Assembly (NCBI RefSeq): GCF_003934285.1
Contig: NZ_RQWJ01000005.1
Coordinates: 1 to 64,000 of the forward strand
Direction of reading: 5' to 3'
Source of the DNA: Brevundimonas fluminis
GTDB taxonomy: Bacteria > Pseudomonadota > Alphaproteobacteria > Caulobacterales > Caulobacteraceae
Length of the DNA stretch: 64,000 bases
Both the position numbers and the translations under genes were made by a program. The notes beneath the pieces are model-generated. The model did no database searches. It saw nothing but the letters and a program-made list of their open reading frames with translations, and was not told where the DNA came from. Shown one piece after another: positions 2,840 to 46,438 of the stretch; position 1 is the stretch's first letter; every line of letters begins with the position of its first letter.

Positions 2840-2878
2840 GGATCAATCCTCTTGAATCTGTAGGGCGCGCAGGGCGGA

Positions 2879-3250
2879 TTACTTCGGACGCTTGGCGCCG
2901 TAGTGCGAACGGCGCTGCTTGCGGTCCTTGACGCCTTGCGTGTCCAGCACGCCGCGCAGGATGTGGTAGCGGACGCCCGGAAGGTCCTTCACGCGGCCGC
3001 CGCGGATCAGGACCACCGAGTGTTCCTGCAGGTTGTGGCCTTCGCCGGGGATGTAGCACACGGCCTCGATGCCCGAGGTCAGGCGCACCTTGGCGACCTT
3101 ACGCAGAGCCGAGTTCGGCTTCTTCGGGGTCGTGGTGTAGACGCGGGTGCAGACGCCGCGGCGCTGCGGGCAGCCCTTCAGGGCCGGCACCTTGTTGCGG
3201 GCGACTTTCGGCTGGCGGGGCTTGCGCATCAGCTGGTTGATCGTGGGCAT
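2879..3250 (-). CDS. rpsL: 30S ribosomal protein S12
   Basis: Decoding-centre protein of the small subunit, 123 residues from the ATG at 3250 ([20 protein letters not shown]). An upstream in-frame extension to 3415 is rejected because S12 begins MPTINQ. Lys43 and Lys88, the classical streptomycin-resistance positions, are both lysine, so the allele looks streptomycin-sensitive. Asp89, the usual methylthiolation site, is present. It is the first gene of the str operon here. Its promoter must lie between 3251 and about 3370, downstream of a hairpin that appears to end the preceding transcription unit. Confidence 0.98.
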
Positions 3251-3370
3251 TCGAACTCGTCTCTCTTCTTCAATCGATGGAGGCGTGTGCCTTTCGGCCG
3301 GAGCGCCTCGACGCCTTCTTTTCGGACGGACCTGACGGACCGCCCCCGGGTGATTTCGAGCCGTCACGAC

Positions 3371-3408
3371 AAACGCAAAAGCCGGAACGCGCGCTGAGGA
3401 CGTTCCGG
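3371..3408 (-). terminator. Candidate terminator upstream of rpsL
   Basis: Read on the minus strand, arms CCGGAACG and CGTTCCGG (3401-3408 and 3382-3389) are followed by CTTTTGCGTTTG. The hairpin lies about 95 bases beyond the stop of the minus-strand lipoprotein gene and about 120 bases before rpsL, so it probably ends the former and insulates the str operon. The U-tract is interrupted, so termination strength is uncertain. Confidence 0.4.
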
Positions 3409-3501
3409 CGGGCACAGCCCGTAGAGTGAATTGTCACGATCGGAGCGGACGCGGACGCCCTCTCGAAGGTGGGCGGCTTCTACGCGCGCGGGGCCGCCGG
3501 G

Positions 3502-3828
3502 TCAAGGGCGGGGGCCGGAAGCCTGTGGAGGTCCGGCGGGCGCGAAGCGGATGGTGAATTCGACCCGGGTTTCAGGGGTCCAGATCTCGTTGCCGCCTTC
3601 GACGTTCAGGTCGTGGCGCCCTTCCGCCCCGTGTTTGGCGTGAAGGCCATAGCCGAATCCGGCGGGCTCCTCGCGCACCACACGGCAGTCCCGGGCGATG
3701 CCCTGGGGCGTGGCCCCGCAGTTGAGGACGACGATGGCGCGCGCCGGGCCGAGCTCGGTCTCCATGGTCGGCGCGCAACCGGCCAGGATCGCCGCGACGC
3801 CGAATGTCGGGAGAAGCCTGTTCGGCAT
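3502..3828 (-). CDS. Small lipoprotein with degenerate TonB C-terminal-like domain
   Basis: 108 residues. The N-terminus has a lipoprotein-type signal (MPNRLLPTFGVAAILAGCAP, lipobox LAGC with Cys18). The mature part, especially LNCGATPQGIARDCRVVREE then PAGFGYGL and a final VEFTIRF strand, resembles the TonB C-terminal fold pattern (two cysteines, GxGF-like turn). There is no Pro-rich spacer and no transmembrane anchor. An AGGAG site precedes the ATG. It diverges from the efflux operon beginning at 3916. Function is unknown; the TonB_C relationship is an inference from the pattern. Confidence 0.7.
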   Translation of the reverse strand: MPNRLLPTFGVAAILAGCAPTMETELGPARAIVVLNCGATPQGIARDCRVVREEPAGFGYGLHAKHGAEGRHDLNVEGGNEIWTPETRVEFTIRFAPAGPPQASGPRP

Positions 3829-3915
3829 GGGGTTGCTCCTGCGACGGAAAGCGCTCCTTCAAGCGTTAGCACATGACCGGGCTCGCGCCCTCCAGCCAGT
3901 GAAGATCCGTCGCCC

Positions 3916-5495
3916 ATGACCGCCACGCCGCTCGCCGCCCCCAAGACGACGAAGCCCCGGTTCCGCCGGCCGCGGCGCGGTCTGCTGTTCGGGATCGGCG
4001 CCGTGCTGCTGGCGGCGCTGGGGATCTGGTTCTTCTTCCTGCGCGGGGACGGAAACGCCGAGCCCTATCGCACCGAGGCCGTGAGGCGCGGAGAGATCAC
4101 GCGGTCGGTGTCGGCGTCCGGGACGCTGGAGGCGCTGGTCACCGTCGAGGTCGGCTCCCAGATCTCCGGCCAGGTGACGCAGGTCATGGTCGACTACAAC
4201 GACCGCGTCCGGCGTGGTCAGGTCATGGCCGTTCTGGATCCCCAGAACCAGCGCAGCGCCGTGGAGCAGTCGCAGGCCCAGATCGCCTCGGCCCAGGCCG
4301 GCGTCGCGCAGGCCCAGGCGCAGGTCGCCCTGGCCCAGGCCGAGTACGACCGGCAGAAGTATCTGTTCGACCGCCAGATCATCGCCCAGGCGGCGCTGGA
4401 CACGGCGGAGGCGTCGCTGCGCACCGCCCGCGCCAACGTCGCCAGCGCGCAGGCGCAGGTGCGGCAGGCGCAGGCGTCGCTGCGCTCCAACCAGGCCACC
4501 CTGGGCCGGACCACCATCACCGCCCCCATCGACGGCATCGTCATCGACCGCCAGATCGAGCCCGGCCAGACCGTGGCTTCGGGCCTGAACGTCGCCGTGC
4601 TCTTCACCCTGGCGCAGGATCTTGGCCGGGTGCAGGCGCTGGTGAACGTCGACGAGGCCGACATCGGACAGGTGCGCGTCGGCCAGCCGGTGCGGTTCAC
4701 GGTCGACGCCTTCGCCGACGACAACTTCACGGGCGAGGTCACCCAGATCCGTGTCCTGCCGACGACGGAGTCCAACGTCGTGGCCTATACGGTCGTGGTC
4801 GAGGCAGACAATCCCGGCGAACGGCTGCTGCCCGGAATGACGGCGAACGCCGAGATCGTTCTGGAGGAGAAGCGCGGCGTGCTGCGCGTGCCCAACTCGG
4901 CCCTGCGGTTCACGCCGGCGGACGTCGAGACGCCGCAGCAGGGGGGCCGCGGCGGTGGGAACTCGCCGTTCGGCCCGGGCGCCGGCGGCGGACAGCAGCG
5001 TCGGGCGGGCGGCGCGCCCGGCCGCGGCAACATGGCGGCGGCCGTCATCGAGGAGCTGGGCCTCGACGCCGCGCAGAGAGCCCGGGTGCAGCCGATCCTC
5101 GACCGCGCCCAGCAGGAGGCGCGGGCGGCGCGGGGTGCGGGCGGCGGCCAGCAGGGCGGCCAGCGGCGACGCGGCATGAACCCGGCGGCGGCCGCCGCCT
5201 TCAACAAGGCCTTCGACGAGATCAAGCCCCTGCTGCGGCCGGACCAGCAGGTGAAGCTGGAGGCCCTGCGCGGCCGGTTCGCCGGCGGCGGCGGACGCGG
5301 CACGGTCTGGGTCCTGCGCGGCGGCAAGCCCGTGCAGGTCTCCATCCGGACCGGCGCCACCGACGGCAGCTACACCGAGGTTCTGGGCGGCGAGCTGAAG
5401 GAAGGCGATCAGGTCATCACCGGCGGCGGTCCGCGCCGCACCGACGAACGCGCCCAGCAGCAGGCCCGGCGCATGACGGGCGGCGGGTTCGGCGG

Positions 5496-5499
<4 letters not shown>
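3916..5499 (+). CDS. HlyD/MacA-family periplasmic adaptor subunit with Gly/Gln-rich insertion
   Basis: Membrane-fusion protein linking an inner-membrane ABC exporter to an outer-membrane channel. It has 527 residues: a cytoplasmic basic tail, one membrane segment (about 22-42), a lipoyl/barrel half-motif (ISGQVTQVMVDYNDRVRRGQ), a long alpha-hairpin rich in AQAQ heptads (about 95-190), the second lipoyl half (ITAPIDGIVIDRQIEPGQTV) and a beta-barrel. MacA-like proteins are usually about 370-420 residues. The excess is an insertion at about 338-458, rich in Gly, Gln and Arg, containing two helices that look like LTxxQ/CpxP-type segments. Its stop overlaps the ATPase start by four bases (ATGA). 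Confidence 0.9.
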
Positions 5500-6156
<657 letters not shown>

Positions 6157-6176
<20 letters not shown>

Positions 6177-7464
6177 GACCTCGACCAAGGGCCAGACCCT
6201 GCACTTCTCCACCGGCGGCATGAGTTCGCTGGAACTGGTGCGTTTCGCCGTCGGAGCCATCATGGCCCATCCGATGCGGTCGGCCCTGACGTCGCTGGGC
6301 GTGGTCATCGGCGTCGCGGCGGTGATCATGATGACCTCCATCGGCGTGGGGGCCCAGCAGCGGGTCGAGCAGGCCCTGTCGAGCCTGGGCACGAACATGC
6401 TGGTGGTGAGGCCCGGCGCGCCCCGGAGCGGGGGCGGCGGCGGCTTCGTGCGCGGCGCGGGCGGATCAGGAGCCAGCCTGACCGTCGACGACGCCGAGGC
6501 GATGCGCACCCTCGACGGCGTGGCCGCGATCTCGCCGGCCATCAACGGCGGCGCCCAGCTGGTCTACGAGGGCGCCAACTGGTCCAGCCGGATCGAGGGG
6601 GTGACGCCCGACTATCTGGTCGCTCGCGATCTCGAGATCGCCTCCGGCCAGATGTTCGACGAGGCGGCGGCCGAGAGCGGGCGCAAGGTCGCGGTGCTGG
6701 GCCAGACCGTGGTCACCGAGCTGTTCGGCGAGGGGGTCGACCCGGTGGGACAGCGCATTCGCGTGGGGCCCATCCCGTTCCAGGTGATCGGCGTGCTGGC
6801 CCCCAAGGGTCAGTCGGGCTTCCAGGACCAGGACGACATCGTCGTCATCCCGCTGGACGCCGCGCGCAGCCGCGTGATCGGCCGCGGTCCGGGCGCGCGC
6901 GGGAACAGCGTGAACCAGGTGTACGTGAAGGCGGTCGACGAGGACGCCCTGTTCCAGCTTGAGCAGGACGTGGCCGAACTTCTGCGGCAGCGGCACAGGA
7001 TCCAGCCGGGCCAGGACGACGACTTCAACGTCCAGAACCTGACCTCCGTGCAGGAGGCGGCCCAGAGCTCGACCCAGACGTTCACGATCCTGCTGGCGGC
7101 GGTGGCCGGCGTGTCGCTGATCGTCGGCGGGGTCGGCATCATGAACATCATGCTGGTCTCGGTGACCGAGCGGACGCGCGAAATCGGCCTGCGCATGGCC
7201 ATCGGGGCCCGGCGCTCGGACGTCCTCACCCAGTTCGCGCTGGAATCCGTGGCCCTGTCGCTGCTGGGCGGGCTGATCGGGCTGACCATCGGCGTGGGGG
7301 GCGCCTTGCTGATGTCGACGCTGGGGGATTGGCCGTCGGTGATCCCGGCGTGGGCGGCGCCGCTGGCCATCGGCTTCTCAAGCTTCGTCGGCGTGGTCTT
7401 CGGGGCCTACCCGGCGTGGCGCGCGGCGCAGCTGGATCCGATCGAGGCGCTGCGGCGGGAATAG
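6157..7464 (+). CDS. MacB-type ABC transporter permease (FtsX-like)
   Basis: Inner-membrane permease of the MacAB-like exporter, 435 residues. The first membrane helix is at about 28-60 (MRSALTSLGVVIGVAAVIMM). A large periplasmic MacB_PCD-type domain contains the usual VVRPGAPRSGGGGGF Gly-rich stretch. Three C-terminal helices begin with the family motif GGVGIMNIMLVSVTERTREI and IGARRSDVL. The start at 6157 overlaps the ATPase gene; an ATG three codons later is possible. The substrate is unknown: macrolides, peptides and lipoproteins are all handled by relatives. No outer-membrane TolC partner is encoded alongside. Confidence 0.92.
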
Positions 7465-7533
7465 CCGCGAAGGGGCCGCATCTTCGCCATGCTTGACCGA
7501 TGTCCTCGCCCCATCGGGGTCGAGCGGGGGCGG

Positions 7534-8298
7534 ATGGCGACGGGCAAGACAGGGACGCGGTGGCGGACGCCGGCGATCCTCATCGGATCGGCCGCCGCGC
7601 ATGCCGTGGTCCTGGGCGTTCTGGGCCTTCGCGCCGTGCAGATGGACGCCTGGACCGGGCCGGAGCGTCCGGTCGTCCTCATCCAGATCGAACCCCGCCC
7701 GCTGCTGCGCGGCGAACGCCCGCGCGAACCCGTCCTCGCCGCGCCGCAGGAGACCGAAACCGCCGCCGAGCGGCGCGCGTCGACGGAGTCTGCCTCCAGC
7801 CCGGTCCGGCGCGAGGACGAGGAAGACGTGCCCGGCGCTCCCGTCCCGCGCACGCCGGCGGCCGGGGCACCCGGCCCTTCTGCGGCGGAGCAGGGCATCG
7901 ACGACGCCTGGCGAGTTCCCGGCGCGCCGACGGGCCGCCAGGTCGGCCGCAGCCTGCGCGGGAGCATGATCGGCTGCGACGTGATGAACGGCCGTCTGTC
8001 CGCCGGCGAACAGGCGCAGTGCGACGAGTCCTTCAACCGCGCGGCGGGCGCCGCCCCGCCGATAGGCGGCAGCGGCGACGCCGGGCGCGACGCCCGTTTC
8101 GCGGCCCAGGGGGCGCGCGAGATCGAAGCCTATGAAGGGCGTCGGCGTCCGTTGGCGGGTGGAACCGGTCTGGGCGAGCACGGCGACTGTCCCGGCTCCA
8201 ACTTCGGCACGGGCTGCCCGGGCCGGCATCTGGATCGGGGCTGGCGGCGCGACAACAACGACGTGATGACCGGGGCTCAAGGCGGCAAGGCGCGCTGA
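7534..8298 (+). CDS. Hypothetical membrane-anchored protein with TonB-like N-terminus
   Basis: 254 residues from the ATG at 7534 (MATGKTGTRWRTPAILIGSA), preceded by GAGCGGGGGCGG. An in-frame ATG at 7489 would add 15 residues before the membrane segment. One transmembrane helix near the N-terminus (AAHAVVLGVLGLRAV) is followed by VVLIQIEPRPLL, as in TonB-type anchors, then a low-complexity Pro/Arg/Glu linker and a C-terminal region with several cysteines (MIGCDVMNGRLSAGEQAQC; DCPGSNFGTGCPG). I do not recognise the C-terminal region and it is not a TonB_C domain. It follows the permease by 69 bases and may belong to the efflux operon. Confidence 0.65.
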   Translation: MATGKTGTRWRTPAILIGSAAAHAVVLGVLGLRAVQMDAWTGPERPVVLIQIEPRPLLRGERPREPVLAAPQETETAAERRASTESASSPVRREDEEDVPGAPVPRTPAAGAPGPSAAEQGIDDAWRVPGAPTGRQVGRSLRGSMIGCDVMNGRLSAGEQAQCDESFNRAAGAAPPIGGSGDAGRDARFAAQGAREIEAYEGRRRPLAGGTGLGEHGDCPGSNFGTGCPGRHLDRGWRRDNNDVMTGAQGGKAR

Positions 8299-8305
8299 GA
8301 CGACG

Positions 8306-8333
8306 AAAAAGGGCGGCCCCGAAGGACCGCCCC
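8306..8333 (-). terminator. Intrinsic terminator of rpoC
   Basis: On the minus strand a GC-rich hairpin (arms GGGGCGGTCC and GGCCGCCC with a TTCG-type loop, 8311-8333) is followed by TTTTT (8306-8310), 26 bases past the rpoC stop. It lies between convergent genes and may also slow transcription from the plus strand. Confidence 0.8.
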
Positions 8334-8358
8334 GTTCCGTTAGTCGTCACGCGGGGGC

Positions 8359-12555
<4,197 letters not shown>

Positions 12556-42533: not shown

Positions 42534-42633
42534 CGGTGAAGATCATCCGCCCGACGCTTCCCCCGCCCGTCCGACGGAGGCCCCGCTGACCGCGCCCCAG
42601 ACGCCCAGCCTGAACCTGAGCTCCGGAGAGCCG

Positions 42634-43995
42634 GTGAAGGTCGCCGCCGCGCGCCTGATGCGTCTGGCCGCCGAGGTCATGCCGCAACGGCGCGTGGGCT
42701 TCATCCGCAACGCAGGACGCAATCTGCCGACGACGCGCGCCAGCCTCGCCGCGCTGGCGCCTCTGGTGGAGGCGGATCCGCGCCAGCCCGTGCCCGAGGC
42801 GTTGCTGGAGTCGGTGAACCACAATCCTTACGGCGGCGCTTCCGTCGGTGACGGGGTCAGCCCATCGGTCGGCCGCTTGGGAGCAGACCTGCTCAAGGAG
42901 GCCGGCTGGGCCCTGGAAACCGATCCGGACCTGAGCCGGGGTGCCGACCTGTATCTCCTGGCGGGCGACCTGCTTCTGGCGGCGCCGGAGGCGAAGCTGG
43001 ACGCCGAACTCGTCGCCCTGTGGCCCTATCTGGAACGGACCATCCGCTTCGACTTCCCGCCCGGCGCGCCCGCGGCGCCCGACGAGGCGTCGGCGGCCCT
43101 GCTGAAGGACGCGGGCTTCATGGCGCTGCTGGACCGCGTCGCCGCCATGGGCCTGCGGGATCCCGGCGGCCGGGAGTGGGATCGCGCGCATCTGGCCCGG
43201 CTTCTGGCCCCGATCTGGCTCGCCCGATCGCCGGCGGCGCATGAGCCGCTGTCCGAAAATCAGACCGAGCGCCTGATGCACGCCGCGGCCGCCCCGCGCA
43301 TGGACTGGGCCCTGCCGACCCTGATCCCGGGCGAGTGGACCGACCTGTCGCCGGCCGACGCCGCCGTGGTTTTGACCTTGGTCGGCGAGGCGGAGCGGCT
43401 GGGCGAGAAGCGCTGGCCGCTCACCCTTGAACACGCCTGCGACCGGGTGCGCAGCCGCTCGCTGGCCTGCTACGGCGGCGCCCTGCTGTTCGAGCTTCAG
43501 GGCTATGGATCCGGCGGCGAGCCGGGCCTGATGTCGGTGCTGATGGCCGGCGACCGGATCTTCGTGGCCGAGGGCACGTCCGCGCCCCTGCATCACGCCA
43601 CCGATGCGGTGGGGCTGCGTCTGGACACGCCGGACGCGCGTCGGGATTTCCTCGTTCTGTTCGCCGGGTGGGTCAGCAGCGGCGAAGGCCGGTTTCACGT
43701 CATCGCGACGGAGCGGGATCTGGCCCCCCGGTTCACGGGCTCGCCGGAGCAGTGGGACGCCGTGACTCCCCTCATCGCCCCGCTGGAGGATCTGGGCCGG
43801 GGCGAGGACGGGCGCTGGGGTTTCGACGCCACCGTCCTTTACGGCGACGCCCTGTTCCGCGCCCGGTTCAGGCTGAACGAGATCGGTCAGGTCGTCATGA
43901 CCGACGAGGAGATGCTGGCGCATGGCCTCCCGGTGAACGTCGAGGTGCGCGACGGGCCGCTGGTGCATCTGAGGACGGGACGGGAGGACGCATGA
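42634..43995 (+). CDS. Unrecognised 453-aa protein coupled to a TraG-like ATPase
   Basis: 453 residues from GTG 42634 (GGAG five bases upstream). An in-frame CTG at 42586, five bases after GGAGG, would add 16 residues. No signal peptide or membrane helix is evident, so it is probably cytoplasmic. Visible blocks: RVGFIRNAGRNLPTTRASLA, ESVNHNPYGGASVGDGVSPS, LLFELQGYGSGGEPGLMSVL and a C-terminal strand-rich domain (WGFDATVLYGDALFRARFRL). I recognise no family. The stop overlaps the next ATG by four bases, so the ATPase is its obvious partner. Confidence 0.8.
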   Translation: MKVAAARLMRLAAEVMPQRRVGFIRNAGRNLPTTRASLAALAPLVEADPRQPVPEALLESVNHNPYGGASVGDGVSPSVGRLGADLLKEAGWALETDPDLSRGADLYLLAGDLLLAAPEAKLDAELVALWPYLERTIRFDFPPGAPAAPDEASAALLKDAGFMALLDRVAAMGLRDPGGREWDRAHLARLLAPIWLARSPAAHEPLSENQTERLMHAAAAPRMDWALPTLIPGEWTDLSPADAAVVLTLVGEAERLGEKRWPLTLEHACDRVRSRSLACYGGALLFELQGYGSGGEPGLMSVLMAGDRIFVAEGTSAPLHHATDAVGLRLDTPDARRDFLVLFAGWVSSGEGRFHVIATERDLAPRFTGSPEQWDAVTPLIAPLEDLGRGEDGRWGFDATVLYGDALFRARFRLNEIGQVVMTDEEMLAHGLPVNVEVRDGPLVHLRTGREDA

Positions 43996-45515
43996 CCGTG
44001 GAACTGGTGCCGGCCACCAACGAGCTGACCCTGCCCGAGACCATCGACAGGCCCGGCATGATCGTGGCGTGGTCATTGGAAGAGGAGCACGGCCGGATTC
44101 CCCCCGGCTTCACCATCGGCGACCGCGACAAGCGGTCGGACGGACTGCTGGACCCCATACTGATGGAGCGTGAGGGGCACCTGATGACCATCGCGCCGAC
44201 CGGCGCGGGCAAGGGCACGGGCTGCATCGTTCCGGCCCTGCTGCGCTTCGACGGGCCGGTCATCGTCATCGACCCCAAGGGTGAGAACGCCCTGATCACC
44301 GCCCGCCGCCGCCGGGAGATGGGCCAGCAGGTCGCCGTCATCGATCCGATGGGCGTGACCGGGCTGCCGTCGGCGGCGCTCAACCCGCTGGACGTGCTGG
44401 ACGCGGACTCCCCGACCTTCGTCGACGACGCCATGGCCATCGTTTCGGCCATGACGCAGGACGACCTGAGCGTCGGCACCAACGACGGCCGCTACTGGGC
44501 CGAACGCGGGGCGACTTTCGTCCTGGGGATCATCCTTCACGTCGTCGCGGACCTGCCGCCGGCGCGGCGGCATCTCGAGACGGTCCGAGATCTGGTGAAC
44601 CAGGCGGTCGGCGAGCTGGCCACATACACCGCCGTGGCCGAGCGTCACCCGGCCGCCGACCTTTCGGGAACCGTCCTGTCCGCGCTGGAATCCTCGCGTG
44701 ACCCGGAGGCGCGCCGCATCGGCCAGATGCTGCGCATAGGGGCCCTGACCACCATCGGCGGCATCCTGTCCTTCTCCCAGAGCATCGTCGATCTGGTGCG
44801 GGGCGGCGCGATCGCGCCGACGATCCGCGATACCAGCTTCGACCTGGGCGCCGTGACCCGCGGCGAGCCACTGTCGATCTATCTGGTGCTGCCGCCGCAC
44901 ATGCTGTCCAGCCATGGACGGCTGCTGCGGCTGTGGGTCCACACCCTGATGACGCGCATCACGGTCCGGAACGGTCGACCCGAGAAGTCGACCCTGTTCA
45001 TCCTCGACGAGGCGGCCCAGCTGGGAACCTTCGACGCCCTGCGCAGCGCCGTGACCCTGTTGCGCGGCTATGGGCTGCAGACCTGGAGCTTCTGGCAGGA
45101 CGCCTCGCAGCTGCAGCGCCTCTATCCGCACGACTGGGAGACGATGATCAACAACTGCCGCGCGGTGCAGTGCTTCGGCGCCAACACCATGCTGGCGGCG
45201 CGGACCATGGCGAGCCTGGTCGGCTACCACAAACCCGACCAGTTGCTCGAACTGGACGACGACGAGATGCTGCTGCAAATCTCGGGCGATCTGCCCGTGC
45301 TGGCGCGCCTGCCGAACTATCGCGCCGACCCGGTGTTCAAGGGGATGTTCGACGACAATCCCTTCCATGACGCCACCCGCCCGGTCGAGCGCCCGAAGGT
45401 GAAGGTCAGCCGCGTCTTCCAGCGGAGCAGCAGACCGGCGCCCGAGCCGGCTCCCGCGGAGACCCGGGACGAAGTGCTGAAGCGGCTGAGGGCCGCGCAG
45501 AGCGAGGGCAAGTGA
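43992..45515 (+). CDS. Orphan TraG/VirD4-family ATPase without membrane anchor
   Basis: 507 residues. T4SS coupling-protein core: GHLMTIAPTGAGKGTGCIVP (Walker A, about 68-76), VIVIDPKGENALITARRRR, SAALNPLDVLDADSPT, Walker B STLFILDEAAQLGTFDALRS, LLRGYGLQTWSFWQDASQLQ and NNCRAVQCFGANTMLAARTM. True VirD4/TraG proteins carry two N-terminal membrane helices; this one begins directly with a soluble segment. No relaxase, VirB or mating-pair gene is nearby. The ATGA overlap upstream and GTGA overlap downstream place it in a chromosomal operon with an unknown protein and a dehydrogenase. Confidence 0.88.
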   Translation: MTVELVPATNELTLPETIDRPGMIVAWSLEEEHGRIPPGFTIGDRDKRSDGLLDPILMEREGHLMTIAPTGAGKGTGCIVPALLRFDGPVIVIDPKGENALITARRRREMGQQVAVIDPMGVTGLPSAALNPLDVLDADSPTFVDDAMAIVSAMTQDDLSVGTNDGRYWAERGATFVLGIILHVVADLPPARRHLETVRDLVNQAVGELATYTAVAERHPAADLSGTVLSALESSRDPEARRIGQMLRIGALTTIGGILSFSQSIVDLVRGGAIAPTIRDTSFDLGAVTRGEPLSIYLVLPPHMLSSHGRLLRLWVHTLMTRITVRNGRPEKSTLFILDEAAQLGTFDALRSAVTLLRGYGLQTWSFWQDASQLQRLYPHDWETMINNCRAVQCFGANTMLAARTMASLVGYHKPDQLLELDDDEMLLQISGDLPVLARLPNYRADPVFKGMFDDNPFHDATRPVERPKVKVSRVFQRSSRPAPEPAPAETRDEVLKRLRAAQSEGK

Positions 45516-46438
45516 GCGACCGTCCCGCCGTCCTGATCGTCCAGCCCCATCTGGGGCCGATCGCGCCCTTTCTGGAGGGAAGCTACGACGTTCATCGCCT
45601 GTGGGAGGGACCTCCGGTCGAGGCGGAGGCCCTGATCGAGGCGATCGTGGTCGCGGGCGAGTTTCCGCTCGATCCCGCATTGATGGACCGCCTGCCGAAG
45701 CTGAGGCACGTCGCCTGTTTCACCGCCGGCTACGACGGCATCGATCCGGCCTGGTGCCGGGCGCGGGGGCTGGAGGTGACCCACGCGCCGGGAGTGAATC
45801 ACGAGGACGTGGCGGACCACGCCATCGGGCTGATCCTGGCGGCGCACCGCAAGATCGCCTCGGGCGACGCCGACGTCCGCGCCGGGCGCTGGACGCCGCG
45901 GTCGAAGACCATCACGCGCTCCCTGGGCGGGCTGGGGCTGGGGATCGTGGGTCTGGGGGCGATCGGCGCGGCGGTGGCCCGACGCGGCGAGGCGATGCGG
46001 ATGATTCCCTCATGGTGGGGGCCACGGGCCAAGGACGCGCCGTGGCCGCGCGCCGGGAGCCTGATCGATCTGGCGAAGGCCAGCGACGTGCTGGTCGTCG
46101 CCTGCCGGGCCGACGAGAGCAATCGCGGGCTGATCTCGGCCGAGGTCATGCGGGCGCTGGGACCCGACGGCCTGCTGGTCAACGTCTCGCGCGGTCAGGT
46201 CGTGGACGAGGACGCCCTGATCGAGGCGCTGAAGTCGGGACGGCTGGGCGCCGCGGCGCTGGACGTGTTCGAAACCGAGCCGACCGACGCGGCGCGCTGG
46301 GCCGACGTGCCGAACACGGTGCTGACGCCGCACACGGGCGGAGCGACGACGCAGGCGGTGCAGGGCATGCTGGGCCTGCTGCTGCAGAACCTCGACGCCG
46401 TGCTGAACGGCCGGCCGCCGGTGACGCCCGCGCCCTAG
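45512..46438 (+). CDS. D-isomer-specific 2-hydroxyacid dehydrogenase
   Basis: 308 residues from GTG 45512, overlapping the ATPase stop (GTGA). NAD-binding Rossmann motif GLGLGIVGLGAIGAAVARRG at about 140-158; conserved LVNVSRGQVVDEDALIEALK and LDVFETEP; catalytic Arg in VVACRADESN, Glu in FETEP and His in TPHTGGAT. It reduces a 2-keto acid or oxidises the D-hydroxy acid; the exact substrate is unknown. Its end overlaps the convergent EF-hand gene by four bases. Confidence 0.92.
   Translation: MSDRPAVLIVQPHLGPIAPFLEGSYDVHRLWEGPPVEAEALIEAIVVAGEFPLDPALMDRLPKLRHVACFTAGYDGIDPAWCRARGLEVTHAPGVNHEDVADHAIGLILAAHRKIASGDADVRAGRWTPRSKTITRSLGGLGLGIVGLGAIGAAVARRGEAMRMIPSWWGPRAKDAPWPRAGSLIDLAKASDVLVVACRADESNRGLISAEVMRALGPDGLLVNVSRGQVVDEDALIEALKSGRLGAAALDVFETEPTDAARWADVPNTVLTPHTGGATTQAVQGMLGLLLQNLDAVLNGRPPVTPAP

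What the first reader, a model, noticed from the sequence alone, without database searches (positions are those of the whole stretch)
42586..45515. Orphan soluble TraG/VirD4-family ATPase coupled to an unrecognised 453-aa protein
The ATPase has all core motifs of T4SS coupling proteins (APTGAGKGTG, FILDEAAQLG) but no N-terminal membrane helices. There is no relaxase, VirB or pilus gene nearby. It is co-translated with an unknown cytoplasmic protein (ATGA) and a 2-hydroxyacid dehydrogenase (GTGA). A stable chromosomal, soluble coupling ATPase with a dedicated partner could be a DNA-pumping, defence or protein-loading system not tied to conjugation.
Basis: partly seen in the sequence, partly recalled or inferred. 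Interest (0 to 1): 0.68.

Follow-up and report, generated by a model that had tools for sequence, protein, structure and literature searches.

The report
Soluble conjugation-type ATPase with new partner
A motor protein related to those that push DNA out of bacteria during mating has lost its membrane anchor, travels as a small two-gene cassette with a partner carrying an undescribed protein domain, and in some other bacteria sits beside immune-receptor-like proteins that carry the same domain, which points to a self-protection module rather than a mating machine.

Summary
In detail: a 507-aa TrwB/VirD4-fold ATPase without membrane helix overlaps by 4 bp a partner with no Pfam, NCBIfam or PADLOC match. 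The link to the 2-hydroxyacid dehydrogenase is accidental: a relative has lysR and the dehydrogenase 39 bp apart, so the pair is a ~3-kb insertion. The own genome shows no VirB4 and no MobA/MobL relaxase. A scan of one genome per species (84,980 species; best 80 of 443 matches kept) gave 78 loci. In 46 the partner's C-terminal domain (here PCD, new) lies directly upstream of the ATPase or is fused to it. In seven loci a second PCD sits in another large protein (an eighth large protein holds its locus's only PCD), and likewise in two Sinorhizobium meliloti plasmids; four of these proteins are Pfam-confirmed nSTAND1-ankyrin (NLR-like) receptors ending in PCD. S. meliloti adds a patatin phospholipase; NYN and CHAT genes occur in other variants. 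Best reading: a soluble translocase-adaptor module of bacterial conflict (immune-type) systems; function untested. The window holds the minimal two-gene form. PCD also occurs alone, often beside housekeeping-like genes, so PCD by itself does not mean defence.

The parts
42586..43995 (+). Partner protein (469 aa from CTG 42586, or 453 aa from GTG 42634): helical N-terminal part plus C-terminal PCD domain
   Evidence: no family match; model mean pLDDT 78.3
43261..43953 (+). PCD domain (new; partner residues 210-440 of the 453-aa form; the ~165-aa HMM core lies at 43444-43944)
   Evidence: alignment of 33 sequences; HMM hit residues 271-437, E 6.7e-53, with a profile that includes this sequence; model blocks of pLDDT 91-97 over most of 211-440, with a dip to 65-79 at 251-270
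43992..45515 (+). Soluble VirD4/TrwB-like ATPase, 507 aa
   Evidence: PF02534; model pLDDT 92.8; TrwB-deltaN70 Z 27.1 over 372 residues
43992..43995 (+). ATGA overlap of partner stop and ATPase start (translational coupling, inferred)
   Evidence: a 4-bp overlap in 14 of 30 relatives whose two genes could both be called
44193..44222 (+). Walker A, APTGAGKGTG
   Evidence: G71, G73, K74, G75 invariant in the 42 aligned sequences
44997..45026 (+). Walker B, FILDEAAQLG
   Evidence: D339 and E340 invariant in the 42 aligned sequences
42534..45511 (+). Inserted segment, 2978 bp between the lysR stop and the dehydrogenase start; in relative G143 the same interval is 39 bp
   Evidence: no target-site duplication seen (longest shared word 8 bp)
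45512..46438 (+). D-2-hydroxyacid dehydrogenase: NOT part of the module (native neighbour, overlaps by GTGA)
   Evidence: present in 15 of 15 genomes of the genus searched, own included; directly after lysR in G143

Best explanation
The pair is the minimal form of a mobile conflict (immune-type) module built around a domesticated conjugation coupling ATPase. Shown: the ATPase has the TrwB/Cagbeta fold (predicted model), intact ATP-binding motifs and no membrane domain, and belongs to a clade of mostly soluble ATPases; its partner carries a new domain (PCD) that is upstream of or fused to the ATPase in several phyla; in some loci a second PCD sits in another large protein of the same locus, at the C-terminus of NLR-like nSTAND1-ankyrin proteins in four Pfam-checked cases. 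Inferred: the ATPase forms a cytosolic hexamer that grips and pumps DNA (or a protein substrate) of an invader; PCD shows no conserved catalytic set and acts as an adaptor docked on the ATPase, perhaps on its all-alpha domain as CagZ is on Cagbeta, holding it inactive or reporting its state; where a PCD-bearing STAND receptor is present, ATPase engagement is passed on through PCD to the receptor and then to a phospholipase, RNase or protease that kills or stops the cell. In the window, where no receptor or effector is next door, the fast-evolving helical N-terminal half of the partner, or a gene elsewhere, must supply that step.
For: Pair unity: 4 of 149 family genomes, always both, 4-bp overlap, different sites; 46 of 78 loci with PCD adjacent (39) or fused (8, one of them both); in the ATPase tree 33 of the 34 rows of the PCD-bearing branch (support 89/71, not decisive) have PCD, and the exception, L052, starts 90 bp from its contig end. 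Conflict context: nSTAND1-ankyrin-PCD proteins (L056, L061, L076; S. meliloti L200); of 12 strong nSTAND1 genes (E<1e-20) in 46 whole genomes, 6 lie inside the ATPase loci, about 0.05 expected by my arithmetic; patatins matching PADLOC phospholipase effector models (9.5e-40 and 4.1e-39); an NYN-domain gene overlapping the ATPase in L081; a CHAT-AAA-PCD cluster in G052. The ATPase fold also matches the DndH C-domain (Z 23.4) and HerA of antiphage complexes (Z about 17-18). The partner diverges much faster (37, 30, 26% identity) than the ATPase (69, 69, 56%).
Against: No experiment. By eye the window locus has no effector, receptor or known defence gene beside it, and neither protein is called by PADLOC beyond weak mad8 (5.4e-8) and DpdF (0.05) hits of the ATPase. 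32 of 78 loci have no adjacent or fused PCD. Strong nSTAND1 genes are at the locus in only 6 of 46 genomes, two of them near-identical Halomonas, and the E<1e-20 cut was set after seeing the list. Patatin proximity alone is not significant (2 of 140 matches inside loci, about 0.6 expected). PCD is found in at least 25 of 385 Alphaproteobacteria, in all but 3 of them without a listed ATPase of this family, often beside housekeeping-like genes (names by eye), so PCD may be a general adaptor. 27 of 46 carriers have a VirB4 somewhere, so use of a distant secretion system is not excluded.
Confidence: 0.55

Rival explanations
1. A coupling protein without a membrane domain that serves conjugation or mobilisation in trans (the recognised 'T4CP lacking TMD' subfamily; TraJ of pIP501 is one), perhaps with a separate membrane partner.
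For: Fold is TrwB/Cagbeta; best sequence profiles are coupling proteins; outgroup ATPases sit with MobA/MobL-like relaxases; such T4CPs exist (PMC7434980, passages); 27 of 46 carriers have a VirB4.
Against: No VirB4 and no MobA/MobL in the own genome; 19 of 46 carriers have no VirB4 hit; 1 of 78 loci has a MobA/MobL-like relaxase; the partner looks soluble (best 19-residue hydropathy 1.11; 4 of 33 relatives reach 1.70-1.81, so not all are clear); PCD is shared with STAND receptors.
Confidence: 0.15
2. A physiological module (protein remodelling or quality control) with PCD as a general ATPase adaptor, later recruited by conflict genes.
For: PCD stands alone beside housekeeping-like genes in many Alphaproteobacteria and lies near a DnaK-like gene in L177 and L181 (names by eye); it also lies next to an AAA ATPase in G052.
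Against: The pair is patchy (4 of 149 in the family), inserted and has a fast-evolving partner; ATPase-paired PCDs are largely apart from the single ones in the tree, although the deep branches are weak.
Confidence: 0.2
3. Loader or chaperone system for a toxin or effector: the ATPase unfolds or exports a protein that the partner recruits (like DotL with IcmS/IcmW).
For: Cagbeta and the Legionella coupling complex are among the best fold matches; T4CPs act with adaptor subunits (PMC12857230, passages).
Against: No VirB4 inside the loci of the 46 genomes searched; I noticed no recurrent substrate gene by eye, which was not tested systematically; no membrane anchor.
Confidence: 0.1

Closest known systems
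HerA/FtsK 'capture' counter-invader systems, including DndFGH (PMC10853773, PMC12839542; passages seen)
   Same: A DNA-pumping ATPase of the FtsK-HerA-VirD4 superfamily in a mobile conflict operon; [quoted passage not shown] the DndH C-domain matches the model at Z 23.4
   Different: Here the ATPase is of the VirD4/TraG branch (PF02534), with PCD as partner; the words VirD4 and TraG were counted 0 times in both main texts
SIR2-HerA and DUF4297-HerA antiphage complexes
   Same: Soluble translocase paired with one partner gene; fold match Z about 17-18
   Different: The partner here is a PCD protein without a recognisable catalytic set, not SIR2 or a nuclease
VirD4/TraG/TrwB type IV coupling proteins
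   Same: Fold over 372 residues, Walker motifs, PF02534
   Different: No membrane domain, no VirB4 or MobA/MobL in the genome, separate clade
Cagbeta-CagZ (Helicobacter pylori; PMC9886983, passages)
   Same: Coupling ATPase controlled by a dedicated small partner
   Different: CagZ traps a T4SS ATPase as a monomer; resemblance of PCD to CagZ was not specifically tested
Bacterial NLR-like STAND systems
   Same: nSTAND1-ankyrin and STAND-TPR proteins in relatives' loci
   Different: Some share a PCD domain with a coupling-type ATPase; no paper listed by the searches made describes this

Membership tests
VirD4/TraG type IV coupling proteins | PF02534 nucleotide-binding domain with Walker A and B | tested here: met
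   E 3.3e-42; key motif residues invariant in 42 aligned sequences
VirD4/TraG type IV coupling proteins | TrwB-like fold with all-alpha domain | tested here: met
   Model pLDDT 92.8; TrwB-deltaN70 Z 27.1, rmsd 4.6, 372 aligned; mostly helical stretch at residues 132-290
VirD4/TraG type IV coupling proteins | N-terminal transmembrane domain (absent only in a recognised subfamily) | tested here: not met
   Hydropathy 0.35 before Walker A
VirD4/TraG type IV coupling proteins | Linkage to relaxase or secretion channel | tested here: not met
   0 VirB4 and 0 MobA/MobL in own genome; 1 of 78 relatives' loci has a MobA/MobL-like relaxase. Other relaxase and channel families not searched
VirD4/TraG type IV coupling proteins | Recruits substrates to a T4SS | not testable with these tools
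   needs experiment
HerA/FtsK capture systems | Superfamily translocase in a mobile cassette | tested here: met
   Fold matches DndH-C and HerA; insertion against an empty site
HerA/FtsK capture systems | Linked nuclease or known effector | tested here: inconclusive
   None seen next to the window pair (by eye); NYN, patatin, CHAT or STAND genes in some relatives
STAND/NLR immune systems | STAND NTPase in the operon | tested here: inconclusive
   None seen beside the window pair (by eye); strong nSTAND1 at the locus in 6 of 46 carrier genomes
Any PADLOC defence system (2023) | Component models match the pair | tested here: not met
   Partner no hit; ATPase only mad8 (5.4e-8) and DpdF (0.05)

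The most novel reading that the evidence does not exclude
A new class of bacterial immunity: a coupling ATPase domesticated from mobile elements works as a cytosolic sensor or trap for incoming DNA (conjugative strand, relaxosome or phage genome), and its PCD partner passes the engaged state on to NLR-like receptors that carry the same PCD domain, which fire phospholipase, RNase or protease effectors; the Brevundimonas-type cassette is its smallest form.
Probability: 0.3. Interest if true: 0.9.

Novelty: new variant of a known kind. Interest (0 to 1): 0.68.

Why it matters
It marks out a family of soluble conjugation-type motors found from Proteobacteria to Spirochaetes, and a domain without a Pfam or NCBIfam model that links such motors, by adjacency or fusion, and NLR-like receptors, by fusion. 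If the reading holds, cells have turned the parasite's own DNA pump into a detector, and the shared PCD domain gives a direct, testable link between DNA-handling motors and STAND receptors. Such ATPases are annotated today as 'type IV secretory system conjugative DNA transfer family protein', which hides them.

Tried and rejected
Rejected: the dehydrogenase as partner. Rejected: N-terminal hits of the partner in G005, G018, G023, G056, G064 (E 7e-5 to 8e-4) as relatives: the matched stretch of L027-L029 lies in genes I read as uroporphyrinogen decarboxylase (name by eye), so taken as chance. Rejected as closest kin: the 31-38% ATPases of the family in L030-L038 and L040, which sit with MobA/MobL-like genes, five of them checked and with hydrophobic N-termini. 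Fold of PCD: no Foldseek match below E 1e-3 in PDB or viral models; VIA best Z 4.1, with cystatin/NTF2-like proteins such as latexin, YpmB and the VirB8-like OrfG around Z 3-4: too weak to name a fold, and the whole 453-aa model was searched, not the domain alone. Phages: no partner match. Patatin enrichment: not significant alone. Junction repeats: none beyond 8 bp. Literature searches that listed nothing direct; the library lacks most subscription papers and preprints.

Limits: genes in loci were called by my own codon-usage script. It called no ATPase in L046, L062, L067, L071, L079, L089, L110, L115 and L117 and misread partners in some others (for example L041, L063, L064), so PCD counts use six-frame ORFs. 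In one search it showed no PCD gene in 3 of 18 PCD loci (L171, L172, L175). The PCD profile was iterated on these loci; the S. meliloti loci were not in it and still match (1.4e-45 and 8.1e-36). The genome scan kept the best 80 of 443 matches. The class-wide counts are lower bounds, as only the top few candidates per genome were scored. VirB4, MobA/MobL, nSTAND1 and patatin were searched in 46 genomes (43 of the 78 loci given as handles, two of them in one genome, plus G000, G022, G102, G049), not in all carriers. Names of neighbours without a Pfam call are by eye. The ATPase tree left out nine loci by choice (L043, L044, L045, L048, L059, L063, L064, L077, L091) and the nine without gene call. 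'Soluble' rests on hydropathy: L043, L075 and L109 reach 1.8-1.9 in the N-terminal stretch and are less clear than the rest.
Full report
WHAT IS THERE. Window 42586-45515 holds two genes on the + strand. The second (43992-45515, 507 aa) has the conjugation coupling-protein domain PF02534 (E 3.3e-42), TraG-D_C and TrwB_AAD_bind matches, and is the only such protein found in its 2.64-Mb genome. It begins about where the soluble part of TrwB begins: the model (pLDDT 92.8) aligns with TrwB-deltaN70 at Z 27.1 over 372 residues and with Cagbeta at Z 25.3 over 391. There is no hydrophobic helix before Walker A. The first gene codes for a partner of 453 or 469 aa without match in Pfam, NCBIfam or PADLOC and without a convincing one in PDB sequences. 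The stretch upstream of the GTG at 42634 aligns with the relative in L022 and by eye with L043 and L050, which with a GGAG six bases before CTG 42586 suggests a CTG start; this is inference.

THE PAIR IS AN INSERTION. The dehydrogenase is present in 15 of 15 genomes of the genus tested, own included. Its surroundings vary: an arsR-like gene lies within 1.5 kb in 14 of the 15, ABC-F is found just before it in 6, and lysR in one, G143; none of the 14 relatives shows the pair there. In G143 phaC, lysR and the dehydrogenase follow one another as in the window, with 39 bp between the lysR stop and the dehydrogenase start; in the window this interval is 2978 bp. The pair therefore landed between lysR and the dehydrogenase and replaced the latter's leader up to its start codon, which explains the GTGA overlap. 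No target repeat was seen; G+C is 70.3% against 68.7 and 71.3% in the flanks. Among 149 genomes of the family, ATPases of at least 58% identity occur in 4 (own included), and the partner lies beside each of them with a 4-bp overlap, among other neighbours. The partner diverges much faster (37, 30 and 26% identity) than the ATPase (69, 69 and 56%).

A MOSTLY SOLUBLE FAMILY. A scan of one genome for each of 84,980 species with the ATPase alignment gave 443 relatives, of which the best 80 (78 loci) were kept, from Pseudomonadota, Gemmatimonadota, Verrucomicrobiota, Spirochaetota, Planctomycetota, Chloroflexota and Bacteroidota. In a tree of 69 ATPases, 62 form one group (support 100/99) apart from six coupling proteins of integrated elements, five of them with hydrophobic N-termini, and L116, the one locus of 78 with a MobA/MobL-like relaxase. 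Of the 62, those in the L075 and L109 loci have N-terminal hydropathy of 1.8-1.9 and are unclear. VirB4 was not hit in 19 of 46 carrier genomes, the window's included, and no VirB4 hit falls in a locus of these genomes. MobA/MobL hits (14 of 46 genomes) were treated likewise; coincidences in L067 and L047 (the ATPase lies there) are not relaxases.

THE PARTNER DOMAIN, PCD. The conserved part of the partner is its C-terminal domain. An alignment of 33 sequences shows scattered conserved positions (W235, R273, L277, Y339, F354, G418, M422) and no set of polar residues that looks catalytic, so PCD is probably a binding domain. In six-frame ORFs of the 78 loci, PCD lies directly upstream of the ATPase in 39, is fused to its C-terminus in 8 (one locus has both; 46 in all), and 32 have neither. 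Where both genes could be called, they overlap in 18 of 30 cases, by exactly 4 bp in 14. In the ATPase tree the PCD-bearing ones fall in one branch: 33 of its 34 rows have PCD and the remaining one, L052, begins 90 bp from its contig end; the branch support is 89/71, that of a 29-row part of it 100/97. Nine PCD proteins had no Pfam match and nine no NCBIfam match at E<=0.1 (eight proteins are in both sets).

SHARED WITH IMMUNE-RECEPTOR-LIKE PROTEINS. In nine loci a PCD is present elsewhere in the locus: in large proteins of L056, L057, L061, L065, L068, L076, L077 and L113, and in a separate small gene in L074. In all but L113 this is a second PCD besides the one next to the ATPase. Pfam identifies three of the large proteins as nSTAND1 NTPases with ankyrin repeats (L056, L061, L076); L077 has nSTAND1 by the genome search and is a near-copy of L076; L057 has a P-loop and repeats by eye without Pfam match; L065 has PCD inside a protein with C-terminal hydrophobic helices by eye. 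A separate collection gave the same picture: in two S. meliloti plasmids the order is a giant protein with C-terminal PCD (residues 1478-1644, E 8.1e-36; 1412-1578, E 3.5e-34), patatin or its unannotated counterpart, PCD (E 1.4e-45), ATPase; Pfam, run on the first plasmid only, shows nSTAND1 and ankyrin repeats in the giant. In a tree of 74 PCDs the ATPase-paired and the receptor-fused copies are mostly in different parts, with weak deep branches. A whole-genome count in 46 carriers supports the link: 12 nSTAND1 matches had E<1e-20, and 6 of them lie inside the 17-kb ATPase loci (L056, L061, L066, L074, L076, L077), about 0.05 expected (my arithmetic; the threshold was set after seeing the list, and L076 and L077 are near-identical Halomonas).

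OTHER VARIANTS. Patatin phospholipases in L066 and L074 match PADLOC phospholipase effector models at 9.5e-40 and 4.1e-39; genome-wide, though, patatin proximity is not significant by itself (2 of 140 matches; a motif search found no other clear patatin in the 78 loci). L066 also has a TrkA_N-RyR protein and an nSTAND1-ankyrin protein, in which no PCD was found. In Erythrobacteraceae (L080-L083) the ATPase has no PCD and overlaps a small gene by 4 bp that in L081 is an NYN-domain gene (the only one of the four tested), followed by a giant protein. In Henriciella (L086) a 1398-aa protein with a weak AAA_16 match follows the ATPase. In G052 a PCD protein sits near an AAA ATPase and a CHAT-domain protein, and no ATPase of this family was listed for that genome.

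AGAINST A SIMPLE STORY. PCD was found in 25 of 385 Alphaproteobacteria and ATPases close to this family (E<=1e-70) in 13 of 385, with only 3 genomes in both lists (lower bounds, since few candidates per genome were scored), and one of these three has its ATPase beside a MobA/MobL-like gene (L184). The single PCDs seen, in 15 of 18 loci read, mostly stand beside genes that look like housekeeping ones, twice near a DnaK-like gene; exceptions are L167, where a 1412-aa protein overlaps it, and L173 with three PCD genes (names by eye). PCD is thus wider than the module and cannot be called a defence domain as such. The window locus has no receptor or effector gene next to it (by eye).

HOW IT MAY WORK. 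Shown: predicted fold, motifs, solubility by hydropathy, pairing, fusion, sharing of PCD with STAND receptors. Inferred: hexameric translocation of DNA, regulation through PCD, signalling to receptor and effector. Cagbeta is held as a monomer by CagZ bound to its all-alpha domain (PMC9886983, passages), a precedent for control by a partner; HerA/FtsK ATPases have been proposed to intercept invader DNA (PMC10853773 and PMC12839542, passages), a precedent for the role. T4CPs without membrane domain are a recognised subfamily that can still work in conjugation (PMC7434980, passages), hence the main rival.

NOVELTY. Searches for VirD4/TraG/coupling proteins with STAND, patatin, ankyrin, anti-phage, conflict or capture terms listed no paper that by title or abstract describes this family; VirD4 and TraG were counted 0 times in PMC8195603 and PMC12839542 and, in PMC10853773. 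I therefore rate it a new variant of a known kind (superfamily-ATPase conflict modules) with a new domain; whether it is a class of its own depends on function.

Noticed in passing
L024 (G052) 2872-9824: A PCD-like protein next to an AAA ATPase and a 1370-aa CHAT-domain protein, with a GNAT-like gene upstream (by eye): a possible protease-based conflict cluster without the VirD4-like ATPase.
   Followed up: partly
L177 4173-8053, L181 4538-7823: Single PCD gene near a DnaK-like gene of about 845 aa (name by eye) in two alphaproteobacterial genomes.
   Followed up: no
L173 (G290) 7795-10886: Three PCD genes close together, with one 337-aa gene among them.
   Followed up: no
L167 7751-13041: A 351-aa PCD protein overlapping by 4 bp a 1412-aa protein with only a very weak nSTAND match (E 0.06), no VirD4-like ATPase seen.
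   Followed up: partly
L080-L083: Erythrobacteraceae variant: ATPase overlapping a small gene by 4 bp (NYN domain in L081) and followed by a 1309-1973-aa protein, no PCD.
   Followed up: partly
L087, L092, L102: Gammaproteobacterial variant with a different two-gene set (mostly 245-280 aa each, by eye) near the ATPase; L092 and L097 carry two such ATPases.
   Followed up: no
L039 (G047) 8729-10117: A lone 462-aa soluble ATPase of the same superfamily next to purA (name by eye), without partner.
   Followed up: no
L201 9124-10498: In S. meliloti CP050559.1 the ATPase is annotated as two overlapping genes, so this copy may be broken or misread.
   Followed up: no
window 42586: Probable CTG start codon of the partner gene (GGAG six bases upstream; upstream segment aligns with relatives).
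   Followed up: partly
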